A stretch of DNA of 34,761 bases from contig JAJRXM010000072.1 of NCBI GenBank assembly GCA_024276275.1, forward strand, positions 72,416 to 107,176, given 5' to 3'. This DNA is from Candidatus Zixiibacteriota bacterium. GTDB lineage: Bacteria; Zixibacteria; MSB-5A5; GN15; FEB-12. This document shows, in pieces, positions 15,808-31,346 of the stretch. How positions within the stretch are numbered: position 1 is the first letter of the stretch; each line of letters starts with the position of its first letter. The position numbers were made by a program, and so were the translations under genes. A model generated the notes under the pieces. The model was given only the letters and a program-made list of their open reading frames with translations, made no database searches and was not told where the DNA came from.

Positions 15808-18068
15808 TAGTTTCGTACCAATAAAATTTTACCTTTGCCTATGTCTCCGTTTTCATCTTTTACAATAAAAAGATAAACACCCGATGCGACATTATTCCCT
15901 CTGTCATTTTTACCGTCCCAAGCATTATTTGCCGACATAGTAATTATATGTTCGCCTGCCGAACTAAAAATAGTTACATCGACCGTTCGTCCAAAATTAA
16001 ATCTTAATTTATCAGATGAAGAATTAATAACGAACGGATTTGGAAAGGCAATGACTTTGGATACTTCAAAAACAGGTTTCCCTATTAGTGAATTGATTAC
16101 TGAAAGTCCCTTATCGGTCGCTATATATATTTTACCTGTATACTTATCAAAAGTTATATTTTGTATATTATCTGAGACCAATCCTGAATTAAATGTTGTA
16201 AACACTTCAAAGGAACCGTCATCTAGATTTCTAAGTGCCAGCCCTTTTCGTGTTCCAATCCATAAATTCCCACGGGAATCAAATTCTATAGTAGTAATGT
16301 CTGAGCTGAGATTTTCAGGTAAAATTATATCTTTGAAAAAGTCTTTTTCATTTTCAAAATCTGATATCCCCGAATCATAGCGTGAAAGTCCAAAATTTGT
16401 TGCAACCCACAGTTCACCGTTTTGTGCGTAAGCAACGTCTCTGATTGTGTTCGAAATCAAAAGAGAGTTCTCTTTTGATAATTTTCTACATTTCTTGTCA
16501 GTTATAAACGGATTATCTCCTATAGTACATACATAGACACCGTCAGACTCTGTACCTACAGCAATTTTACCGTTATCGTAATCCAATGAAGTTAAAAAAT
16601 GATTTGTCAACCCATGAATAGTCCCTACAGAATCCCATCCGCTTAGAGAATTTAGATTTACCATATCACCTATAGCTATAGGATAGTTACCGGAATCACT
16701 TTCATTGGCACGATAAGAAGTAAAAAAAACATATCTTCCGTCGGTGTCCATACCGGTTGTATAGACCCACCTTAAGCCGTCCGGGAAGTCATCAGAATTT
16801 CCCCTGAGAGTAGAATTGGTTTCATCATAATTGATAAGTGAATCATTATCCAGTAACCAGACACCATTCCCCCAAGTTCCCATCCAAACTCTATCAAGCG
16901 AGTCAAGCATGCTTACTGTCGCACTCTGGCCGACAGAAAAATTAAAATCATCCCAAAAAGAATCGGTTAACTGAGCAAAGGTTCGGTTATTAAAACCACC
17001 ATACTTGGTTCCCTTGCTGTCAACGGCTATATCAGAAACATTATTATCCGGCAGACCACCCAAAATAAAATCTGAAACAACTGTATTCTCTATAGTCACT
17101 ACACCGTTTTTATCACTGCCGACCCATTGCCTATTATCAAAAAGAACTTCATCAGACGGTGATATATTTCCTACCGACGAAGTAAACAACAGAACATCCG
17201 ACAAAACATAATACAATGTTCCGACAAAAGGGTTCTTCGCCATTACTACCATTGTATCAGCATGCATAGATATTTTTTGAAATGATGCTGAGTTCGACAA
17301 TTGTATTTCTGAAAGAGAAACAACACCAAAGTTATCAACAGTAATTTTATATAAGCCTGTTTTATTTAACGCATACATAGAAGAACCGACCTGTTTAATA
17401 CTGACAAACTCATTGTTATCAAGCAGGCTGAAGTTTCGGTTGCTAATTGTTGTCCAATTTGACGGTGACTTCAACAACGCCGGGTTACTATAGTCTGCAA
17501 ACGCTACACCGTCGGATGTTGCTATCCAAATTGTATCGTTACGCAGAAGAATATCATGCACTATCGGATTAGGATTTAAATCTCCAAACAGAGGATAGCT
17601 GTCTTCAATTTGCCCACCGTCGTTTATTTTTGAAAAAAGGACCAAGCCCAAAGAAGAACCGATCCATATAAAGTTATTGTCATCAACTAGAGTATGCAGT
17701 TGAAAAAGATTATTATTCAAATTATCAAAAAAGAGAAACTGTTCAAATGAATCATTTGACCATTTTATCAGTCTGCCAAATCCGGTTATCCATTTATCTT
17801 CGTTTGCATCTTTCATTATGTCGGTAATATTATTAGTTCCTAATCCGTCTAGTTTGTGAAATGAAATGGGTGATGTATCGAATGACGACAAGACAACCAA
17901 CCCGCCCGATGTAGCGATATATAAGCTGTCATCAATAACTTTTAAATTTTTTACTTCTTGAAAGGAAGTATAGTTTTCCCATTCGACCGCTTGTACGGAA
18001 AGCGGCAAAATAAAAGCGAGAATAATAATTCTAAGAAGACTTATTTTATAATTTTTCGTATAATCCAT
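15807..18068 (-). CDS. Secreted two-component-regulator-type beta-propeller protein with sorting tail
   Basis: Exported protein of 753 residues from the ATG at 18068, where 'LLRIIILAFILPLSVQA' forms a signal peptide; an in-frame TTG 42 bases upstream would add a non-signal leader. The body is a series of Reg_prop-like blades, each with a pattern like 'NGELWVATNFGLSRYD', 'RGNLWIGTRKGLALRN' and 'TGKIYIATDKGLSVIN', probably forming one or two seven-bladed propellers. The last 90 residues contain 'AFPNPFVI', 'VTIFSSAGEHI', 'AWDGKNDRGNNVASGVYLF' and resemble the FlgD/Por sorting tail. There is no kinase or DNA-binding domain. It overlaps the 3' end of lnt by 28 bases. Confidence 0.86.
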   Translation of the reverse strand: MDYTKNYKISLLRIIILAFILPLSVQAVEWENYTSFQEVKNLKVIDDSLYIATSGGLVVLSSFDTSPISFHKLDGLGTNNITDIMKDANEDKWITGFGRLIKWSNDSFEQFLFFDNLNNNLFQLHTLVDDNNFIWIGSSLGLVLFSKINDGGQIEDSYPLFGDLNPNPIVHDILLRNDTIWIATSDGVAFADYSNPALLKSPSNWTTISNRNFSLLDNNEFVSIKQVGSSMYALNKTGLYKITVDNFGVVSLSEIQLSNSASFQKISMHADTMVVMAKNPFVGTLYYVLSDVLLFTSSVGNISPSDEVLFDNRQWVGSDKNGVVTIENTVVSDFILGGLPDNNVSDIAVDSKGTKYGGFNNRTFAQLTDSFWDDFNFSVGQSATVSMLDSLDRVWMGTWGNGVWLLDNDSLINYDETNSTLRGNSDDFPDGLRWVYTTGMDTDGRYVFFTSYRANESDSGNYPIAIGDMVNLNSLSGWDSVGTIHGLTNHFLTSLDYDNGKIAVGTESDGVYVCTIGDNPFITDKKCRKLSKENSLLISNTIRDVAYAQNGELWVATNFGLSRYDSGISDFENEKDFFKDIILPENLSSDITTIEFDSRGNLWIGTRKGLALRNLDDGSFEVFTTFNSGLVSDNIQNITFDKYTGKIYIATDKGLSVINSLIGKPVFEVSKVIAFPNPFVINSSSDKLRFNFGRTVDVTIFSSAGEHIITMSANNAWDGKNDRGNNVASGVYLFIVKDENGDIGKGKILLVRN

Positions 18069-18610
18069 TGTAATATAAACATACACAATAAAATGAGAGT
18101 TATCAACCAAGAGATATATCCAATTATATCTCCATATTTTGTAAAAATAGTTTTTTCGTATAGTAAGTTAACTTTACTTTGTAAAGCGGCGACCTCAAAA
18201 AGTTCCAATCTATCCCGAATTCGCCCATACCCGTCAACAACATACGTATGCCCCGAATTTGCAACCCGCACACCCCATGAACGGTTTTCAATTGCCCGAG
18301 TGAGAAAAATACGGGCATGCATTTCAATACCGACAGATGACCCAAACCAGGTATCGTTCGTAATACCTACCAGAAAATTAGCACCTTTTAGAATAGCTTC
18401 ACGTGAAAACTCAGGAAACGTAGATTCAAAGCAAATTAAAACTGCATAGCTATAATCCGGCAGTTCAAAAAGTTTTATTGAATCACCCGGATAAAAATCC
18501 GACCACCATTGGACATTGTATGTCTTTATGAATGTCAGATATTTTTCGACAAAATCTTTTTGTAACAAAGGGAAATAATCCTGATAAGGTACATGTTCTG
18601 AATATGGCAC
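18041..18610 (-). pseudogene. lnt: Apolipoprotein N-acyltransferase, C-terminal part (frameshift fragment)
   Basis: The second half of Lnt's nitrilase-like domain and the last transmembrane helix. It carries the catalytic Cys in 'LICFEST' (residue 60 of the fragment), 'GITNDTWFGSSVGIEMH' and 'RAIENRSWGVRVANSG', all strong Lnt signatures, and ends in a membrane helix (about 158-182). The first usable start is GTG at 18610, but the frame is open upstream and reads 'FNPQGELEQRYDKVKLVPY', which contains the catalytic Lys of the 'YDKVKLVP' motif. That stretch overlaps the end of the N-terminal fragment in another frame, so the two belong to one gene. Confidence 0.88.
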
Positions 18611-18615
18611 TAATT

Positions 18616-19551
18616 TTACTTTATCATATCTTTGTTCAAGCTCTCCTTGCGGATTAAACTGATAGACTGAATTAAAATATCTTTGTTTATTTTTTTATTT
18701 CCAGCCCCTAATGCTCCGACCAAGTGGTAGCCTCCCGATTGTATCGCTATTTGTCCGACAACTTTGCGATATTCGGCATTATGAGACAAATATGTAGGAG
18801 CAGATGTTTCCGGCCAAATAAATAATTTAGGTATAGTATCAGAGGCAGTCTGTGCTAAAGAGTCATACAACTTAAAAGAATGCCACTCGTTTCCTTTTGC
18901 CCATTTCACATCTATCGGTACAGAACCTTGCAACAGGACAACATCAACTTTACCCGGTACCGGATATTTCGGAATAACAATCCACCCGTACGAAACCAAA
19001 CCGCCGATAATAACGATAGAAACTAAAAACGATGTAAGTTTTCTCTCCGTTTTTACTTCTTTTCTTAATATTTGCCATAGTAAGATATTTACAATAATGA
19101 TTAATAAAGAAAGACCGTGAACCGAGGTTACCGAAACAATTTGCATAATTTTCAAATAGAATGATTGTGTATAACCGATATCTGACCAGGGAAATGAAAA
19201 CTCGGTCAAGGTTCTGAAATACTCAAGCCCGACCCAGAGAAACGGAAACAGCACTATCCCATATATCGGTTTTATATGATACGTTTTACTAAACAACCAA
19301 AAAAGGATTGAGATATAAAATGCCAACAGAAATACAGCACCAAAAAGCCCGGGAACAGTTACCATCGAAATCCAGTAGATTAAAAACAAGTTTAGAAAAA
19401 ATCCGTAAAACAGACCTGTCTTAAAAGCTTCTTTGGTTGTAAGTTTAGAAAATATCGCTATCGGTCGAACCAAGGCAATCCATGCTAAAAATCCAAAGTA
19501 CTCAGGATAGTATGAGAGTGATAATAAAAATGCCCAAAAGATTAACTCCAA
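18616..19551 (-). pseudogene. lnt: Apolipoprotein N-acyltransferase, N-terminal part (frameshift fragment)
   Basis: Membrane half of Lnt, which N-acylates the lipidated Cys of lipoproteins in the inner membrane. The fragment has about six hydrophobic segments, 'PEYFGFLAWIALVRP' near the N-terminus, 'SFPWSDIGYTQS', and the catalytic Glu in 'FIWPETSAP' (about residue 248). After 'GALGAGNKKINKDI' the frame runs into non-family sequence and stops at 18616, while true Lnt sequence continues in the -1 frame. One missing base between about 18665 and 18690 would restore a protein of about 500 residues. The start is TTG at 19551 with GGA eight bases upstream. The gene lies 70 bases after gpmI. Confidence 0.88.
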
Positions 19552-23050: not shown

Positions 23051-24031
23051 CTAAGCACCTTCATTATTCAAAATATTTATTACTCTATTATAATCATCAG
23101 GGATTTTCGCTTCAAGTTCAATTTTCTCACCGGTAATCGGGTGAGTGAATGCTATTTTCTGAGCATGTAAAGCCTGACGTTTGAGAGTTCCTAAAAGTTT
23201 TTTAGCAAGAGGTCTTTCGGGACCGAATATTCCTTTGTGCCATTTATCCCGTCCCCCGTATTCATTATCTCCAAAAACAGGATGACCGAGATGTGAAAAA
23301 TGCACCCGAATCTGATGAGTCCTTCCGGTTTGCAGAGAAACTTCCAAAAGGTCATAGGTACGATAACGGGCAAGAAGTTTGTATTCGGTAATAGCTTCAC
23401 GACTGCCGACATTTGTTACAGTCATTTTTTTACGGTCGTTGATAGACCTGCCTATCGGGAGATTTATCTCGCCAAAATCCTCTTTCATATGTCCGCAGAC
23501 TAAGGCAAGATATGTTCGTTTTACCTCGCGGGCTTGGATTGCTTCTTGAAGTTTGTGATGGACATTGTCATTTTTAGCTATCAACAAAAGCCCCGATGTA
23601 TCTTTGTCTAATCGATGTACAATTCCGGGTCTGTCTTTATCGGTTGCCTGCGATAAGTTTTGAAAATTAAACAGCAATGCATTCACCAAAGTACCCGATT
23701 TATTTCCTGCTCCCGGATGTGTCACCAAGCCGGGTTGTTTGTTTACAACGGCGAGATATTCATCGTCATAGACAATATCCAAAGGGATATCTTCAGGCTC
23801 TAACAAAATTTCTTCTGCGGGAGTTATGCTGATTATAATCGTATCATGAGGTTTGACTTTTTGTTTTTTGTTTGCTTCTAACCCGTTGATGATAATCGCT
23901 TGGTCGGAAATCAGATTTTGAATTTTAGAACGGGTAAGTTCTAAATCAGGATGTGAGGCGAGATATGAATCAATACGTTCAGATTCAGTCCCTTCATCAA
24001 CAATAATTTCAATTTTTTCTATTTCAGCCAT
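23051..24031 (-). CDS. rluD: 23S rRNA pseudouridine synthase, RluD-like
   Basis: RluA/RluD-family pseudouridine synthase with an N-terminal S4 RNA-binding domain (about 15-75), acting on 23S rRNA helix 69 if a true RluD. Signatures: catalytic Asp in 'GIVHRLDKDTSGLLL', 'QPGLVTHPGAGN', 'LQTGRTHQIRVHFSHLGHP' and 'RQALHAQKIAFTHPITG'. It is 326 residues, normal for the family. AGGG lies only one base before the ATG, so initiation may be weak or leaderless; a TTGACT box sits at 24065-24060. Other paralogues of the family (RluC) cannot be excluded from sequence alone. Confidence 0.93.
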   Translation of the reverse strand: MAEIEKIEIIVDEGTESERIDSYLASHPDLELTRSKIQNLISDQAIIINGLEANKKQKVKPHDTIIISITPAEEILLEPEDIPLDIVYDDEYLAVVNKQPGLVTHPGAGNKSGTLVNALLFNFQNLSQATDKDRPGIVHRLDKDTSGLLLIAKNDNVHHKLQEAIQAREVKRTYLALVCGHMKEDFGEINLPIGRSINDRKKMTVTNVGSREAITEYKLLARYRTYDLLEVSLQTGRTHQIRVHFSHLGHPVFGDNEYGGRDKWHKGIFGPERPLAKKLLGTLKRQALHAQKIAFTHPITGEKIELEAKIPDDYNRVINILNNEGA

Positions 24032-24832: not shown

Positions 24833-25459
24833 TTAGCTCACTTCCCAAAGAGATATCAAACAATGAAGTTTTTGCTTAAACCCTAATATACTTCCTGTTT
24901 TAAACGAAAACTCTTCATCAATCAACGACACATTTATTTTCCTGTTACTATCTTCTTCCCTATTCAATCCTTTTATTTTTTGTTCGCCCCAAAAGTATGT
25001 TATCTCTTTGTTATTCTCGTTTACTATTTTCTCGTGCATGTCTTTTTCAAAACAATCTTTTAACCCGCAAAATAATTTGATAACATTCTTGTCTCTGATT
25101 CTATGAAGTTTTTCAATATCATCTAAATATGTTTCAATCCTATTTACCAATTTAAATTCGAGAATAATTTTTTTCACAATATCTTTCTTTTCATTTTCCC
25201 AATATTCGAAGATTAAATCTGATGGGCCTCCAGCTTTATCAAATGTATATTCTGTGTACCAATCAAAATAATTAGTATTAAAAATAAATTCATTTCTATA
25301 GGCGACTTGTTTCCCAACCTCAAAAACAAATGCTAGTTCAGGCATATCAAAAAGACCTTTATTTTCACCCGATGCACTAATCAGTTTATCTTCTTTTAAA
25401 GCTGTTTCAATAATGACTTCTCTAATTTTATTTTTGATAAATGTTTCGTTCGCACACAT
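24833..25459 (-). CDS. Orphan PD-(D/E)xK nuclease-like protein
   Basis: I do not recognise the family. The 208-residue protein has a pattern typical of restriction-endonuclease-like folds: 'GGPSDLIFEYW' with Asp81 at the end of a strand, then 'KKIILEFKL' with Glu101 and Lys103, giving D-x19-ExK; Glu47 in 'FVFEVGKQ' could be the helix acidic residue. The region after it, 'YLDDIEKLHRIRD', looks helical. The ATG at 25459 has AAGG five bases upstream and TTGACA at 25529-25524, so it looks expressed. No methyltransferase, toxin or defence partner is adjacent. It is enclosed by inverted repeats. Nuclease activity is inferred from the motif only. Confidence 0.68.
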   Translation of the reverse strand: MCANETFIKNKIREVIIETALKEDKLISASGENKGLFDMPELAFVFEVGKQVAYRNEFIFNTNYFDWYTEYTFDKAGGPSDLIFEYWENEKKDIVKKIILEFKLVNRIETYLDDIEKLHRIRDKNVIKLFCGLKDCFEKDMHEKIVNENNKEITYFWGEQKIKGLNREEDSNRKINVSLIDEEFSFKTGSILGFKQKLHCLISLWEVS

Positions 25460-25546: not shown

Positions 25547-25564
25547 TTCCAGCCTTCGCTGGAA
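25547..25564. repeat. REP-like hairpin (TTCCAGC-CTTC-GCTGGAA)
   Basis: A perfect 7-bp stem with the stable loop CTTC, followed by TGACA. The type 'ATTCCnGCnTTCGCnGGAATGACA' is a common intergenic repeat in many bacteria. Confidence 0.7.
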
Positions 25565-25693
25565 TGACATTGAAAAGCCTCTCTTGTCAGGAACAACCGT
25601 CTCCTAAACTACAATTTCTTTACATAATCAACGCAGATTCCTATGCTCCCCTGTTTTATATGATTATGAATATTTTGTTACAACAAATAGTTT

Positions 25694-25753
25694 TGTCGGG
25701 TTTCTCGATTTTGAAATCTAACGATTTCAAACCAACGGAACCACGACCTACTT
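25694..25753. repeat. Right arm of the composite inverted repeat
   Basis: TGTCGGGTTTCTC (25694-25706) and CGGAACCACGACCTACTT (25736-25753) are reverse complements of 24289-24301 (exact) and 24251-24268 (one mismatch). Between them TTTGAAATC-TAAC-GATTTCAAA (25710-25731) is a perfect 9-bp hairpin. Confidence 0.78.
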
Positions 25754-25769
25754 CCAAAGGAACTTTTTT

Positions 25770-25813
25770 GTCGGGTTCAGCTTCCACCTATCGGAGTTCG
25801 TTTGGAACCCGAC
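25770..25813. repeat. Short inverted repeat GTCGGGTTC / GAACCCGAC
   Basis: GTCGGGTTC (25770-25778) and GAACCCGAC (25805-25813) are perfect 9-bp arms around 26 bases. The motif GTCGGGTT also occurs at 25695 and, reversed, at about 24294 and 24759, so it is a recurrent unit of this island. Confidence 0.7.
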
Positions 25814-25962
25814 CTACAGGTAGATAATGTTTTATAAATAAGAACAGGAAATTAGAAAAAACAAAAAATGAACGGAACAAAGCCATTTTGCTGTAACACT
25901 AAGGACGTAATGAGATTATAGAGAAAAAGTTGTTTCGAACAGACCAGACCCCTCTTTTGGGC

Positions 25963-26111
25963 TTGTTGAAAAACCTCTCTTTTAGGAACATACTTCGACT
26001 CCGCTCAGTATGACAAATTGTAAGTTGTTGTCTTTCAAGTCACCCTGAACAGGTTGCAACCTGTGAGCAGAGTCGAAGGGTCTTGAAAGACAAACTGGAC
26101 TTTTTCAACAA
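25963..26111. repeat. MITE-like 149-bp element with 11-bp terminal inverted repeats and a central cruciform
   Basis: TTGTTGAAAAA (25963-25973) and TTTTTCAACAA (26101-26111) are perfect terminal arms. Inside are the right copy of the 25-bp repeat (25990-26014) and a large hairpin: TTGTCTTTCAAG (26028-26039) pairs exactly with CTTGAAAGACAA (26082-26093), then ACCCT with AGGGT, then the 14-base palindrome CAGGTTGCAACCTG (26050-26063). It lies about 40 bases after the PdxJ-like gene and may also block transcription into the island. There is no coding capacity. Confidence 0.7.
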
Positions 26112-26153
26112 ACTCTTTTAAGAAGGGTCGGGTCTGTTTATATTTTCACTAAA

Positions 26154-26870
26154 CTACTTTTTCAACAGCGTTTGCATATCATCAACAGCTTGTTTTAGTC
26201 CGAGCAATAATGCCTTTGAAACAAGCGCATCACCGATTATAAATGACTCAAACATCTGCAATTCTACAAGCGGTTTGATATTTTTATAATGCAGACCTCT
26301 TGCACCGACAAGAGAAAGATTATGCTTCACCGCCGATTGAGCAGCTCTGTCAATTCGGTCGAGTTCCGCCTGAGCATCACCAACCGTACGAGCCTCGGTA
26401 TAACCTGCACAGTTTAAAACAACTACCGATGCTCCCGCTTTTGCGGCACCTTTAATTTCATCAGGTTCAGGTTCAACAAAATACCCGACTTCAACACCAA
26501 CCGCTTGTAATTGGTTTGAAACAGTTCTATAATCGACAGGGGCAGAACTAAAATCTATTGGTGATAACGGAGAATCGGAGTCGGCATGGTCGGCGGCAAA
26601 AATAACAGTATGAGGTTTTAGTTCTCTAATTTTCTCGATAGCCTCTTCGGCAGGCGGCATTTCAACAATCAGTTTTGTTTTTACGATACCTTTTAAAAGA
26701 TACAAATCACGCTCCCGAATATATTTTCTATCTCTGCGAAACTGCACCGAGACCGCATCAACACCATATAGCTCGCCAAGCATTGCAAGCTGTGAGGGGT
26801 CCGGTTCGTTTTGTCTTGAGACCGAACGAAGCACCGCGGCCATATCTACATTAAAAGTCAATAACGACAT
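26154..26870 (-). CDS. PdxJ-like (pyridoxine 5'-phosphate synthase fold) protein with altered active site
   Basis: The 238 residues align end to end with PdxJ, the TIM-barrel enzyme that makes pyridoxine 5'-phosphate: 'FNVDMAAVLRSV' for the usual NxDHxATLR, 'VSVQFRRDRKYIRERD' for VHLREDRRHIxDRD, 'KLIVEMPPAEE' for NLEMA, 'GARGLHYKNIKPL' for AGHGLxYxNV, and 'FIIGDALVSKAL' for NIGHAIVxRAV. The conserved His residues are replaced by Met10, Gln43, Tyr50, Arg191 and Asp214; Asp9, Arg45 and Glu70 remain. It is therefore probably not an ordinary PdxJ. Ribosome site AAGGAAA precedes the ATG. It follows rsmA by about 50 bases. The frame is intact, so it is under some selection. Confidence 0.8.
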   Translation of the reverse strand: MSLLTFNVDMAAVLRSVSRQNEPDPSQLAMLGELYGVDAVSVQFRRDRKYIRERDLYLLKGIVKTKLIVEMPPAEEAIEKIRELKPHTVIFAADHADSDSPLSPIDFSSAPVDYRTVSNQLQAVGVEVGYFVEPEPDEIKGAAKAGASVVVLNCAGYTEARTVGDAQAELDRIDRAAQSAVKHNLSLVGARGLHYKNIKPLVELQMFESFIIGDALVSKALLLGLKQAVDDMQTLLKK

Positions 26871-26920: not shown

Positions 26921-27724
26921 TTATTTCTTATACGGAAGAATATTACGAAGGGCGAATAAATTAGTCAATTTTAAAAAGTTTTCCAAAGAAATCTGTTCAG
27001 CCCTAACTTTGTCAGACAATTCGCACTCAGTAAGAGCAGAAATTATTTTATCAGATTTTGGAAAAACTTCGGAAGTTATGTTATTTACAAAAGTTTTACG
27101 CCGTTGTGAAAATGCTGTTCTTACTAGCAGTTCAAACAGTTCACGATTTTCAACTGGGATATTTTCTCTCGGTATTAATTTTACTAAAGATGAATCCACT
27201 TTAGGTGGAGGAGCAAAATGTTCAGGTGAGATATTAAAGAGTAGTTCCACCTCAAAATACAGCTGTGTGAAAATCGCCAGTGGTGACCAATTTTTTGTGT
27301 GCGGTTTTGCAGAAAGCCTTAGGGCAACTTCTTTTTGAGTCATAAAAAATGCCGAAAGGATATCATTGTGTCGTTTACACGCCCATTCAATGACCGGAGT
27401 TGTAATGTTATACGGAAGATTTCCAACCAGCATATAATCTTTGAAATCAGGTTCATAGAGTAAAAAATCGGTATGGATAATTTCAACATTCGGAAACTTG
27501 GAAAGTAGTTTTGTCAGATAGCCGATCAAATCATTGTCAAACTCAATCGCTGTGACTAATGCATCTGATTCGGCAAGCGGAAGTGTTATTGCTCCTCTTC
27601 CTGAGCCTATTTCTATAATACGGGAATTTTTCTGAGGATTAACAGCATCGATAATTTGTTGAATTATATCCTGAGATTTTAAAAAATTCTGTCCGAATCT
27701 TTTTTTGGCACGATAGCCGGACAT
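26921..27724 (-). CDS. rsmA: 16S rRNA (adenine1518-N6/adenine1519-N6)-dimethyltransferase
   Basis: RsmA (KsgA) dimethylates two adjacent adenosines in the 3' hairpin of 16S rRNA during small-subunit assembly. At 267 residues it has 'KKRFGQNFLK' at the N-terminus, the SAM motif 'IIEIGSGRGAITLPL', 'AIEFDNDLIGYL', the catalytic 'LVGNLPYNITTPV', 'MTQKEVALRL' and 'FAPPPKVDSSLVKL', all typical. The ATG lies four bases past the tatD stop and uses a GGAG within the tatD end, so the two are co-translated. All catalytic motifs are intact. Confidence 0.97.
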   Translation of the reverse strand: MSGYRAKKRFGQNFLKSQDIIQQIIDAVNPQKNSRIIEIGSGRGAITLPLAESDALVTAIEFDNDLIGYLTKLLSKFPNVEIIHTDFLLYEPDFKDYMLVGNLPYNITTPVIEWACKRHNDILSAFFMTQKEVALRLSAKPHTKNWSPLAIFTQLYFEVELLFNISPEHFAPPPKVDSSLVKLIPRENIPVENRELFELLVRTAFSQRRKTFVNNITSEVFPKSDKIISALTECELSDKVRAEQISLENFLKLTNLFALRNILPYKK

Positions 27725-27727
27725 AGC

Positions 27728-28159
27728 TTAATCTCCGAATGTTTCTACGAGTTTGAAAAGCTTCTGCACTGTTCTGTCTACAGTTTTTTCAACTTCGTTT
27801 ATATCAATCTGCTTGAGTTCCGCAAGATGCTGATAAACATACTTTACAAGTGCCGGACGATTGGTTTTTCCCCGATGCGGAACCGGTGCTAAAAAGGGTG
27901 CATCTGTTTCCAAAATAATTTTTTCAAGCGGAACTTCACGGGCAACATCGGCCATTGTTGCTTTTTTATAAGTAATAATACCGCCGACCGAAATGACAAA
28001 CCCTAAATCAAAAACTTTTTGAGCCTCTTCAACCGTTCCGGGAAAACAATGAAAAACTCCGCCCGGTATGTCAAAGGCATAGTCCTGTACAATCTCATAG
28101 GTATCATCAAATGCTTCGCGGGTATGAATCACTATCGGCAATTTCAGTTCAACTGCCAT
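27728..28159 (-). pseudogene. tatD: TatD-family metal-dependent hydrolase, C-terminal part (frameshift fragment)
   Basis: C-terminal two thirds of a TatD-type deoxyribonuclease/hydrolase. It carries 'LPIVIHTREAFDD' (metal His), 'GVFHCFPGT' (metal His), 'FVISVGGIITY' and 'ILETDAPFLAPVPHRGKTN' (catalytic Asp). The frame is open upstream to the break and reads 'KVIAIGEIGLDYYRDYS', with the metal-binding Glu of the GEIGLDY motif, continuing through 'QQLEMAVELKLPIVIHTR'. The first start used by the fragment (ATG at 28159) falls inside a conserved helix, so it is not a natural gene start. It ends four bases before rsmA. Confidence 0.88.
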
Positions 28160-28236: not shown

Positions 28237-28503
28237 CTATAGCGATAACTTTTTTTCAGATGTCAGCTCTTTTATTTTTGAAATAATTTGGTCGTTTGCA
28301 TGTTTGGCATCGCTCGGATTAATCCCTACTGCGGCAAACACCGAATCAAATTGACTAGCATACGCAACTGATATTTCCGATGATTTTAAATCGGTACCGA
28401 TGTTCAGAATTGTATGAACACCGTTATCATTTGCATTTGTGACTAAATCTGAAACTGAACCTGATTTTTCTATGTAATTCAGATGGCAATGAGAGTCTAT
28501 CAT
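28237..28503 (-). pseudogene. tatD: TatD-family metal-dependent hydrolase, N-terminal part (frameshift fragment)
   Basis: The 5' part of tatD, with the metal motif 'MIDSHCHLNYIE' at the N-terminus and 'VFAAVGINPSDAKH', normal for the family. At 28266-28258 the minus strand reads G-AAAAAAA-G. The frame continues GAA AAA AAG TTA and stops at TAG 28239-28237. Family sequence continues in the -1 frame as 'KVIAIGEIGLDYY'. The break lies exactly at the heptamer A-AAA-AAG in the original frame, the slippery site used by dnaX. A lost A from a run of eight is equally consistent. The ATG shares one base with the metG stop. Joined, the protein is about 258 residues. Confidence 0.88.
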
Positions 28504-28976
28504 CAGCTGACTTTGGCACCTGCTGGAAGGTCATCAGACGGTGTCAGAAGTGTCAGTTTTTTACCTTTTTTAGCAGCTAATAACATACCGTTTGATTCTA
28601 TACCTCGGATAGTTGCAGGTTTTAAATTTGCAACCAGAATTACTTTCATCCCTTTTATTTTTTCAGGAGGATAATGCTCGGCTACACCCGCAACAACCTG
28701 ACGAGTTTCAGCCCCGACGTTCACCTGCAGTTTCAACAAACGGTCGGCACCTTCCACTTTGTCAGCTTCTAATACTTCAGCTACGACAAGACGGACTTTG
28801 GCAAAATCGGAAATATCAATTAAGTTATCTTCTTCTTTTGCTAGTTTATTATTCTTTTTCTCGATAGCTTTTCTGTCAATACGAGGGAAGATTGATTCTT
28901 CAATTTGTACGACAGAGCCCGGTTTCAAGTCAAAAAATGTATTAGCTCTTTCAAGCGTCAAGGTAGTATCGTCAAG
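28503..28976 (-). pseudogene. metG: Methionyl-tRNA synthetase, C-terminal tRNA-binding domain (after in-frame stop)
   Basis: In the same frame as metG, directly after its TAA. It reads 'LDDTTLTLERANTFFDLKPG', then 'ESIFPRIDRKA', which is the end of the MetRS anticodon-binding domain, followed by a Lys/Glu-rich linker and a Trbp111-like EMAP-II/OB tRNA-binding domain: 'ISDFAKVRLVVAEVLEADKV' and 'ANLKPATIRGIESNGMLLAA'. Because it begins in the middle of the last catalytic-module helix, it is not a free-standing Trbp111. The first alternative start is TTG at 28961. Its TGA shares one base with the tatD ATG. Confidence 0.85.
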
Positions 28977-30416
28977 TTAAAATACGTTTCTTATCTCACG
29001 CATTTTGTTTGGCATAATTGGGAATAGGACTATCGAAACTATCCGAATAACTTCGGCACAGGCATACAAAATTCCGCCGGCTTCCTCAAGTTTTCCTTCT
29101 TTGACTAGTTTCCATGGAGCCTTATCATTAAAATATTTATTAGTAAATCGTATTAAATCAATCGCTTCGTCTATAGCTTTTGACAGTCTAAAATGTTTTA
29201 TATGTGCATAAATCGTATTCGGAAGAGGCTCCGTTCTTTCCATTATTTCTGTAATTTCTTTAGTAGAACTACTCGGTTTTGGAATCTTCCCGTCAAAATT
29301 TACAATCATCATTTTTGCAACTCGAGAGACTAAATTGCCCAAGTCATTGGCAAGGTCAGAATTGTATTTGGTGACAAATCTTTTAGCCTGAACATCGCCG
29401 TCAATTCCAAAAGGAAACTGTGTCAATAAAAGGTATCTGGCACCGTCAATGCCAAACTGTTCGACAATAGCATTAGGGTCAATCGTATTACCTAATGTCT
29501 TTGACATTTTTTCACCGTCAACGGTAAAGAACCCGTGTATAAACATCGTCTTTGGAAGTTTAACTCCGGCAGCCAAAAGCATTGCAGGCCAGAAGAGAGT
29601 ATGAAATTTTAAAATATCTTTTGCCATCAGATGCACTACTTCACCGTCAGTCCACCATTTATTGAATGTTGCTTCATCATCTCCGTAACCGATAGCTGAG
29701 ATATAATTAGAAAGAGCATCGACCCACACATAAGCAACCTGTTCTTTGTCGAATGATAACGGCACTCCCCATTTTACGCGTTCACGGGAAAGAGAAAAGT
29801 CAGGAATATCCTGATTGATAAGTCCGAGTACTTCCCGCTTGCGTTCTTCTGGTAAAATTAACAGTTCATTTGATTCAATAAGTGCTTTTATCTTGGGTAA
29901 AAATGCGGAGAGCCTGAAAAAGTAATTTTTTTCTTTTAGTGCTTCAGGTTTTACTTTATGGTCGGGACATAGCCCATCAACTAATTCTTTTTCGGTAATA
30001 AATTTTTCGCATCCCGTGCAATACAGACCTTCGTAATCAGCAGAATAGACCACATCCTGTCCGTCATCTGTTTTTGCCAAACGCATTGCATCCAGTATTT
30101 TCCAGACTGCTTTTTTATGACGTTCTGAAGTTGTCCGAATAAAATAGTCGTTTTCTATATCTAACTTTTTTAATACATTTTGAAAAGAAACTACAATTTT
30201 ATCGCAATAATCGATTTCAGACATACCTGATGCTGCAGCTACTTCGGCAACTTTATTGCCATGTTCATCGGTACCTGTTAGAAAAAAAACTTCCCGTCCT
30301 GCGATTTTATGAAATCGGGCTATCATATCCACAGCAATAGAAGTATAGGCATGCCCTATATGAGGGACATCGTTTATATAGTAGATTGGTGTTGTTATAT
30401 AAAATGGTTTTGGCAA
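28977..30416 (-). CDS. metG: Methionyl-tRNA synthetase, catalytic and anticodon-binding part, stopped by in-frame TAA
   Basis: Charges tRNA-Met with methionine in the cytoplasm. It has 'FYITTPIYYINDVPHIGHAY' with the HIGH motif, one zinc knuckle 'CTGCEKF' with a 'LCPDH' partner, 'VWVDALSNYISAIGY', and the KMSKS loop 'KMSKTLGN'. The anticodon-binding part reaches 'LFPIMPNKMREIRNVF', then TAA (28979-28977), and the same frame goes on into 28503-28976. The full protein would be about 637-639 residues, normal for MetG. Start choice: the ATG at 30422 is directly joined to GGAG, which is too close, while TTG at 30416 is six bases from that GGAG and is preferred. Confidence 0.92.
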   Translation of the reverse strand: MPKPFYITTPIYYINDVPHIGHAYTSIAVDMIARFHKIAGREVFFLTGTDEHGNKVAEVAAASGMSEIDYCDKIVVSFQNVLKKLDIENDYFIRTTSERHKKAVWKILDAMRLAKTDDGQDVVYSADYEGLYCTGCEKFITEKELVDGLCPDHKVKPEALKEKNYFFRLSAFLPKIKALIESNELLILPEERKREVLGLINQDIPDFSLSRERVKWGVPLSFDKEQVAYVWVDALSNYISAIGYGDDEATFNKWWTDGEVVHLMAKDILKFHTLFWPAMLLAAGVKLPKTMFIHGFFTVDGEKMSKTLGNTIDPNAIVEQFGIDGARYLLLTQFPFGIDGDVQAKRFVTKYNSDLANDLGNLVSRVAKMMIVNFDGKIPKPSSSTKEITEIMERTEPLPNTIYAHIKHFRLSKAIDEAIDLIRFTNKYFNDKAPWKLVKEGKLEEAGGILYACAEVIRIVSIVLFPIMPNKMREIRNVF

Positions 30417-30440
30417 AATCATCTCCGGTTTAGAAAAATT

Positions 30441-30950
30441 CTAATTATTGGAATCATCAAGTTTCTTTATATCAGCTTTACTAATTTCATTTTCATCTAT
30501 TTCATCTAATCGTGACTTTTCTATTGATGCATTATCACGACGTGCTTTATCGACAGTTAGAATATCTTCTGCCGATGAACGTATCATAACGCCTTCGCTA
30601 TCACGAATAACTGCCTCTTCGTTGAATATATCAATACGAGTAATTACACCATCTCCGTTTTTTGTTTTTACTTTAGTACCGGGAAGAGGGAATTTACCTT
30701 TGACGGTGTCATACGTTTCAGTTTCATATCGTAAACAACAAAGTAACCGTCCGCAATTACCTGAAATTTTAGATGGGTTTAGCGGTAGGTCCTGGTCTCG
30801 TGCATGTTGAGTTGAGATCGGTTTAAAGTCTGCGATAAATGTATTACAACATTGCTGTAAACCGCAAATACCGATTCCTCCGAGACGACGGGCTTCATCA
30901 CGAACACCGATTTGTCTCAGTTCTATACGGGTTTTATATTGTGATGCTAA
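30441..30950 (-). pseudogene. ricT: PSP1/RicT-like protein, C-terminal part (after in-frame stop)
   Basis: In the same frame as 30951-31346, directly after its TAG. It starts 'LASQYKTRIELRQIGVRDE' and contains the PSP1 Cys cluster: 'GICGLQQCCNTF' and 'SGNCGRLLCCLRYE', the iron-sulfur ligands in RicT-type proteins. A further region, 'FPLPGTKVKTKNGDGVITRI', follows, then an acidic and basic tail ending at TAG 30443-30441, 19 bases before the metG ATG. No start codon lies near the beginning of the piece, so it cannot be a separate gene. It must be the remainder of ricT. Confidence 0.86.
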
Positions 30951-31346
30951 CTATTTTACTAACTCTCTGAAATCTACCCGATGGTCAGCAGTAAAAAACA
31001 CTGTCATTTTATTGCCGTCGAATTGCCATTCTATATCGACGATTTTCATTTTCAATTTGTGTTTTTTTATCAGTTCTAAAATCTCAGCTTTATTGTCTAA
31101 TTCTTTTTTCTGATGTAAATCAAATTTATTGATATCCGAATCTGATGCGGGACGTAGTATTGAACGAGGTTTTTGGTTCTCTTGAAAACTAAGTTCAACA
31201 TCGACCTTTTTAGAAAGAGTACCGATATCTTCACCGCGTTCTGCTTGAATAATTACAAGTTCTGAAAGATTTAAAGAATGGTAATATGTATTGTAGAAGT
31301 ACTCTTTTCGAGAGCCTTTAAATTCTACTAAATAAAGTTCTGCCAA
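30951..31346 (-). CDS. ricT: PSP1/RicT-like protein, N-terminal part, stopped by in-frame TAG
   Basis: The N-terminal half of a PSP1-domain protein (RicT/YaaT family), which in Bacillus works with RicA and RicF on RNase Y-dependent RNA processing; its role in this organism is unknown. Visible: 'LYLVEFKGSRKEYFYN', 'VIIQAERGEDIGTLSKKV', 'MKIVDIEWQFDGNKMTVFFTA', 'DHRVDFRELVK', where the PSP1 domain is in mid-course, then TAG 30953-30951 and in-frame continuation with the Cys cluster. The start is TTG at 31346, with AAGGAG six bases upstream. In family members the stop position often holds Asp or Glu. The full protein would be 301 residues. Confidence 0.86.
   Translation of the reverse strand: MAELYLVEFKGSRKEYFYNTYYHSLNLSELVIIQAERGEDIGTLSKKVDVELSFQENQKPRSILRPASDSDINKFDLHQKKELDNKAEILELIKKHKLKMKIVDIEWQFDGNKMTVFFTADHRVDFRELVK

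What the first reader, a model, noticed from the sequence alone, without database searches (positions are those of the whole stretch)
26154..26870. PdxJ-fold protein that has lost nearly all active-site histidines
End-to-end similarity to PdxJ is clear, but positions of the conserved His residues hold Met10, Gln43, Tyr50, Arg191 and Asp214, and the TTEGGLD segment is absent. The frame is clean in a neighbourhood with many breaks, so the gene appears maintained. It may be a pseudoenzyme or catalyse a different reaction; proximity to rsmA and tatD gives no obvious role.
Basis: partly seen in the sequence, partly recalled or inferred. Interest (0 to 1): 0.6.

Follow-up and report, generated by a model that had tools for sequence, protein, structure and literature searches.

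The report
Retired vitamin B6 enzyme kept elsewhere
This gene descends from the vitamin B6 enzyme PdxJ, but the bacterium now makes vitamin B6 by a different route, and across most of its phylum the protein has lost its catalytic residues while still being kept under strong selection, so it probably does a different, still unknown job.

Summary
ORF 26870-26154 (minus strand, 238 aa) is a PdxJ (pyridoxine 5'-phosphate synthase) homologue end to end. It has Met, Gln, Tyr, Arg and Asp at the five conserved histidines, and the TTEGGLD motif is gone. It is the only PdxJ homologue in the genome, a Zixiibacteriota MAG.

PdxA, which supplies PdxJ's substrate, is absent, and the alternative PLP synthase PdxS/PdxT is present. 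Across 132 genomes of the phylum, canonical PdxJ occurs with PdxA and without PdxS. Altered PdxJ occurs without PdxA (0 of 74 genomes), nearly always with PdxS (71 of 74). Both forms lie behind metG-tatD-rsmA, so the altered gene is a retained orthologue, not a stray paralogue.

It is not decaying: dN/dS is 0.06-0.08, and it diverges no faster than RsmA. The constraint has moved. Ligand-pocket positions, invariant in canonical PdxJ, evolve at background rate. Outer helices 25-34, 53-62 and 163-182, variable in canonical PdxJ, are now among the most conserved parts.

I conclude that it was retired from B6 synthesis and repurposed, probably in a role carried by its surface. A remodelled active site (Asp9, Gln43, Arg45, Glu70, Arg191) remains possible. 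The molecular function is not established.

The parts
26154..26870 (-). pdxJ* : intact gene for the altered PdxJ-fold protein, 238 aa
   Evidence: model pLDDT 93.2, pTM 0.90, closest solved structures all PdxJ, TM 0.93
26841..26843 (-). Met10 codon, in place of His12 of E. coli PdxJ; variable in the family
26742..26744 (-). Gln43 codon, in place of catalytic His45; Gln in 23 of 26 family members
26721..26723 (-). Tyr50 codon, in place of His52; Tyr/Phe in 21 of 26
26661..26663 (-). Glu70 codon, the retained catalytic Glu72; Glu in 24 of 26
26547..26597 (-). active-site loop (residues 92-108) in which the TTEGGLD motif has been replaced; lowest model confidence
26298..26300 (-). Arg191 codon, in place of catalytic His193; Arg in 24 of 26
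26229..26231 (-). Asp214 codon, in place of His216; variable in the family
26769..26798 (-). outer helix, residues 25-34, newly conserved (holds Gln27, Glu33)
26685..26714 (-). outer helix, residues 53-62, newly conserved (holds Arg54, Tyr57)
26325..26384 (-). outer helix, residues 163-182, newly conserved (AQxELDRID motif, Lys182)
26921..27724 (-). rsmA, upstream neighbour, conserved next to pdxJ*
23051..24031 (-). RluD-type pseudouridine synthase gene, the direct downstream neighbour of pdxJ* in relatives

Best explanation
This is the direct descendant of a working PdxJ at its old chromosomal position. When this lineage came to rely on PdxS/PdxT for pyridoxal phosphate and no longer had PdxA, the protein was released from pyridoxine phosphate synthesis and kept for another job. 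Shown: orthologous position, loss of the catalytic histidines, absence of PdxA, presence of PdxS/PdxT, strong purifying selection, and a shift of constraint from the pocket to outer helices. Inferred: the present job is carried mainly by the outside of the barrel (binding a partner protein or forming an assembly), with the pocket at most binding a phosphorylated ligand. The partner and the process are unknown.
For: It is the only PdxJ homologue in the genome. PdxS is at C13 with a PdxT (SNO) gene less than 1 kb downstream. PdxA is absent from 61 of 61 close relatives and from all 74 phylum genomes with altered PdxJ, while canonical PdxJ goes with PdxA and never with PdxS. Both forms sit behind metG-tatD-rsmA. 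dN/dS is 0.06-0.08, below rsmA's 0.10-0.22. Divergence from canonical PdxJ equals that of RsmA, ratio 1.06. The 14 pocket positions are invariant in canonical PdxJ but evolve at background rate in f1 and f4. Site-rate profiles: f1 versus f4 rho 0.49, canonical Zixi versus other phyla 0.59, f1 versus canonical 0.16; the difference 0.32 has a 95% interval of 0.17-0.47. Helices 25-34, 53-62 and 163-182 gain constraint in f1, and independently in f4. Glu33, Arg54, Tyr57, Glu83 and Lys182 are near-fixed in all altered families but variable in canonical ones.
Against: Part of the pocket is not free: Asp9, Gln43, Arg45, Glu70, Arg191, Gly192 and Gly213 are conserved in f1, which suits a ligand or a new reaction. 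The three helices were chosen after looking at f1, and only f4 is an independent check. No partner protein was identified. No coordinates were available to test whether the newly conserved residues are exposed or lie at subunit interfaces. Some otherwise complete genomes lack the gene, so it is not essential everywhere.
Confidence: 0.55

Rival explanations
1. A new enzyme: the PdxJ pocket has been rebuilt around Asp9, Gln43, Arg45, Arg46, Glu70, Asp94 and Arg191 and catalyses another reaction on a phosphorylated small molecule.
For: In f1 the replacements are uniform over about 50% identity: Gln 23/26, Arg46 24/26, Glu70 24/26, Asp94 22/26, Arg191 24/26; the phosphate-side glycines are fixed. 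Glu70 is the retained catalytic glutamate.
Against: The pocket as a whole evolves at background rate, and positions 10, 100, 151 and 214 are free. Other altered families have different pockets: f4 His/Gln/Asn; f9 and f10 His45 with Gly193; f3 Thr/Ser. Yet they share the new rate profile and the non-pocket signature. A common new chemistry is therefore unlikely, though family-specific ones are possible.
Confidence: 0.3
2. It is still a pyridoxine 5'-phosphate synthase with unusual catalytic residues.
For: Same fold and same operon position. Bacteroides- and Tistrella-type PdxJ show that positions 11, 12 and 194 can change.
Against: His45 and His193 are kept in all ten PdxJ examined from other phyla plus E. 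coli and lost here. No PdxA is present to supply the substrate. PdxS/PdxT makes PLP directly.
Confidence: 0.05
3. A relic that is decaying by drift after the pathway switch.
For: Several families and genera have no PdxJ at all; the pocket is relaxed.
Against: dN/dS 0.06-0.08 and a divergence rate equal to RsmA. No internal stop in any of the about 65 altered genomes with a clear match. Outer helices became more conserved, not less.
Confidence: 0.05
4. A sequencing or assembly artefact like the breaks in neighbouring genes.
For: metG, tatD, lnt and the PSP1 gene are broken in this assembly.
Against: Two same-genus MAGs share 86% and 82% of the protein and nearly all the substitutions.
Confidence: 0.01

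Closest known systems
PdxJ, pyridoxine 5'-phosphate synthase (TIGR00559, PF03740; PDB 1HO1, 1M5W, 5DLC)
   Same: Full-length fold, TM 0.93 to solved PdxJ; same gene position as canonical PdxJ of the phylum; Glu72, Asn9, Asp11, Arg47, Gly194 and Gly215 kept.
   Different: Five conserved His and TTEGGLD lost; below every NCBIfam pdxJ equivalog cut-off; no PdxA; PdxS/PdxT present; constraint moved to outer helices.
PDX1.2 of eudicots, a non-catalytic homologue of the PdxS-type PLP synthase
   Same: A catalytically disabled homologue of a B6 synthase that is kept; PDX1.2 is described as a pseudoenzyme regulating B6 synthesis (PMC6829848).
   Different: A different enzyme family (PdxS/PDX1). PDX1.2 acts beside its active paralogues; here no active PdxJ remains. 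A regulatory role for this protein is not shown.
Bacteria reported to encode both B6 routes (Caldithrix abyssi, Fibrobacter succinogenes and others; PMC9997740)
   Same: A PdxJ-family gene together with PdxS/PdxT.
   Different: Reported as having two pathways from signature genes; whether their PdxJ keeps its catalytic residues was not tested here.

Membership tests
PdxJ (pyridoxine 5'-phosphate synthase) | Full-length match to the family profile and PdxJ TIM-barrel fold | tested here: met
   Pfam PF03740 169 bits, 2-233/234; Foldseek TM 0.93 to PdxJ structures
PdxJ (pyridoxine 5'-phosphate synthase) | Score above the curated equivalog cut-off | tested here: not met
   TIGR00559 145 bits versus 192.75; NF003625 160 versus 190; canonical Zixi PdxJ scores 280-338 with these two models
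PdxJ (pyridoxine 5'-phosphate synthase) | Catalytic His45, Glu72, His193 (E. coli numbering, own knowledge of UniProt P0A794) | tested here: not met
   Gln43, Glu70, Arg191: one of three kept
PdxJ (pyridoxine 5'-phosphate synthase) | Ligand-binding His12, His52, Thr102, His216 and the TTEGG loop | tested here: not met
   Met10, Tyr50, Ser100, Asp214; loop reads SPLSPI
PdxJ (pyridoxine 5'-phosphate synthase) | Substrate supply by PdxA in the same genome | tested here: not met
   No PF04166 match in own genome or 60 relatives
PdxJ (pyridoxine 5'-phosphate synthase) | Enzymatic activity: DXP plus 3-amino-1-hydroxyacetone 1-phosphate to PNP | not testable with these tools
   needs assay or complementation
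Pseudoenzyme of the PdxJ fold | Kept under purifying selection without the catalytic residues | tested here: met
   dN/dS 0.06-0.08; orthologues intact
Pseudoenzyme of the PdxJ fold | No catalytic activity of any kind | not testable with these tools
   Glu70 and other pocket residues are conserved, so another activity is possible

The most novel reading that the evidence does not exclude
A phylum-wide natural experiment: after a switch from the PdxA/PdxJ to the PdxS/PdxT route, PdxJ was kept in place and converted, in several families, into a protein with one shared new surface function and diverging pockets. That is a previously undescribed class of PdxJ-derived protein, possibly a scaffold or regulator tied to the metG-tatD-rsmA-rluD translation operon.
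Probability: 0.4. Interest if true: 0.7.

Novelty: new variant of a known kind. Interest (0 to 1): 0.52.

Why it matters
PdxJ presence is used as the signature that a bacterium makes vitamin B6 by the DXP-dependent route (PMC9997740). In most of this phylum that inference would be wrong. Pfam alone calls all of these genes PdxJ, and some score above an NCBIfam equivalog cut-off too. The phylum holds working and altered versions at the same locus, so it can be used to study how an enzyme fold is reused once its reaction becomes unnecessary. The prediction is directly testable by complementation.

Tried and rejected
(1) Shifted histidines or misalignment: rejected, alignments over these sites are gapless. 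(2) A second, canonical PdxJ in the genome: none. (3) Horizontal paralogue: rejected by shared gene order with canonical PdxJ. (4) Decay: rejected. (5) Recoding behind the in-frame stops in metG and PSP1: the two stops are TAA and TAG and same-genus relatives are open there, so ordinary breaks or assembly errors are likelier. (6) Role from the conserved c13-c8-c6 genes between rsmA and pdxJ in other families: no Pfam match, no lead. (7) A PLP-binding Lys in the pocket: none of the conserved lysines (64, 85, 182) is at an active-site position. (8) Search for relatives outside the phylum: the one genome-contig scan found only two same-genus MAGs, and the plasmid hits listed for the window protein were ordinary PdxJ records. 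(10) No prior description of a PdxJ-like protein found in the held papers.

Full report
What is there. The ORF at 26870-26154, minus strand, codes for 238 aa and matches Pfam PdxJ over the whole profile at 169 bits. It falls below all NCBIfam pdxJ equivalog cut-offs. An AlphaFold model built on 35 homologues has mean pLDDT 93.2 and pTM 0.90. Its first 16 PDB matches are all PdxJ, the best at TM 0.93 and about 30% identity, followed at a distance by other phosphate-binding TIM barrels such as ribulose-phosphate epimerase.

Residues. TTEGGL is SPLSPI, and Glu153 is Val. Asn9, Asp11, Arg47, Glu72, Gly194 and Gly215 are kept. That these are the catalytic and ligand positions rests on my knowledge of the E. 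coli enzyme (UniProt P0A794); a paper places the active-site loop at 95-105 (PMC10471632). As a control, ten PdxJ from Proteobacteria and Bacteroidota, plus E. coli, keep His45, His52, Glu72, Thr102, Glu153, His193 and His216 without exception, with changes only at 11, 12 and 194 in two of them.

Organism and pathway. The nearest named records are Candidatus Zixiibacteriota MAGs. The genome (3.39 Mb, 95% complete) has a single PdxJ homologue and no PdxA. It has PdxS, with a PdxT (SNO) gene less than 1 kb downstream. In 132 genomes of the phylum, families f6, f12, f13 and f14 have PdxJ with all canonical residues where the full gene is read, scoring above 300 bits (one fragment aside). Nine of those eleven genomes have PdxA and none has PdxS. 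The other 74 genomes with a PF03740 match have altered PdxJ; none has PdxA and 71 have PdxS. Two of the three without PdxS are under 80% complete. Families f5, f7, f8, f18 and f19 have PdxS and no PdxJ, so the gene can be lost.

Descent. Canonical PdxJ of f12, f13 and f14 and altered PdxJ of f9, f10 and f17 lie behind metG-tatD-rsmA plus two or three unannotated genes (c8, c6 and mostly c13). In f1 to f4 (one f4 genome excepted) the altered gene lies directly behind, or one gene behind, rsmA, and mostly before an RluD-type pseudouridine synthase. Together with single copy and a tree in which f1, f4, f9 and the canonical set each form one group, this makes the altered genes orthologues by position. 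The tree does not settle how many times the alteration arose: f17 is unresolved near the canonical group, and f15/f16 are too distant to place.

Selection. Against two same-genus MAGs dN/dS is 0.06 and 0.08, compared with 0.10 and 0.11 for rsmA and 0.06-0.08 for the RluD gene. dS is 1.4-1.5, so the absolute values are approximate. Protein distance from canonical PdxJ divided by RsmA distance is 1.06 for f1 and 0.87-1.14 for the other families. So there was no overall relaxation.

Where selection acts. In canonical PdxJ the 14 pocket positions are invariant within the phylum. In f1 and f4 they are no more conserved than random columns (P 0.36 and 0.61; rate ranks). Site rates from separate trees correlate 0.59 between canonical PdxJ of this phylum and of other phyla, 0.49 between f1 and f4, but only 0.16 between f1 and canonical (difference 0.32, 95% interval 0.17-0.47). 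Subsampling f1 to ten sequences changes nothing. The segments that gain constraint are outer helices 25-34, 53-62 and 163-182 (mean rate rank 0.32 in f1 and 0.42 in f4, against 0.65-0.66 in canonical). I chose them on f1; in f4 the same segments give a change reached by 1 of 237 circular shifts. Glu33, Arg54, Tyr57, Glu83 and Lys182 are nearly fixed in f1, f4 and eleven sequences of five further altered families, but variable in 21 canonical sequences.

Reading. The pockets of the altered families differ (f1 Gln/Glu/Arg, f4 His/Gln/Asn, f9 His with Asn or Gln and Gly at 45/72/193), while the outside signature is shared. One shared job carried by the outside of the barrel explains this better than one shared new reaction. 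Within f1, however, seven pocket residues are well conserved, so a ligand or a family-specific reaction cannot be excluded. Steps shown: orthology by position, residue loss, pathway exchange, purifying selection, shift of constraint. Steps inferred: loss of PNP synthase activity, the surface role, and the order of events.

Literature. A survey of 21,105 genomes used pdxJ as the signature of the DXP-dependent route and found only ten genomes apparently with both routes, among them Caldithrix and Fibrobacter, which belong to the same broad FCB group by my knowledge (PMC9997740). No paper in the held library uses the term PdxJ-like. Subscription papers are not held, so absence of a prior report is not proven.

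Limits. No search outside the phylum reached distant relatives. The f15/f16 proteins (45-70 bits in the Pfam scan) may be a separate branch of the superfamily. No atomic coordinates were available for exposure or interface tests.

Noticed in passing
window 28237-28503 and 27728-28159; 28503-30422; 30444-31346; 18041-19551: tatD and lnt are each split by a frameshift, next to A7 runs; metG (TAA) and the PSP1 gene (TAG) each by an in-frame stop. Same-genus relatives have tatD, metG and the PSP1 gene open (a same-family one has lnt open). Likely assembly errors or strain-specific lesions.
   Followed up: partly
window 24833-25459 and about 25560-26140: A 208-aa ORF without Pfam match and a stretch with a MITE-like inverted repeat (CTTCGACTC...GAGTCGAAG) separate pdxJ* from the RluD gene here; most relatives lack this insert.
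   Followed up: no
L095:5563-9354 and the same place in L086, L093, L096, L098, L100, L101: A conserved run of three unannotated genes (about 600-640, 200 and 186 aa, clusters c13, c8, c6) lies between rsmA and pdxJ in canonical lineages and in f9, f10 and f17, and is absent in f1-f4; no Pfam match for representatives.
   Followed up: partly
L087, L088, L089, L090, L091, L092, L106: Families f15 and f16 carry a much more diverged PF03740 protein (45-70 bits in the Pfam scan) without the active-site loop, at other loci, in two of the four f16 loci flanked by a GNAT and a radical SAM gene; possibly a separate PdxJ-superfamily branch.
   Followed up: partly
genome G122 (family f17), pdxJ locus L063/L102: A 94%-complete genome with altered PdxJ, no PdxA, and apparently no PdxS; possibly a vitamin B6 auxotroph or a missing contig.
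   Followed up: no
genome G015 (family f1): A 100%-complete genome of the same family with PdxS but no PdxJ homologue, so pdxJ* is dispensable in at least one lineage.
   Followed up: no
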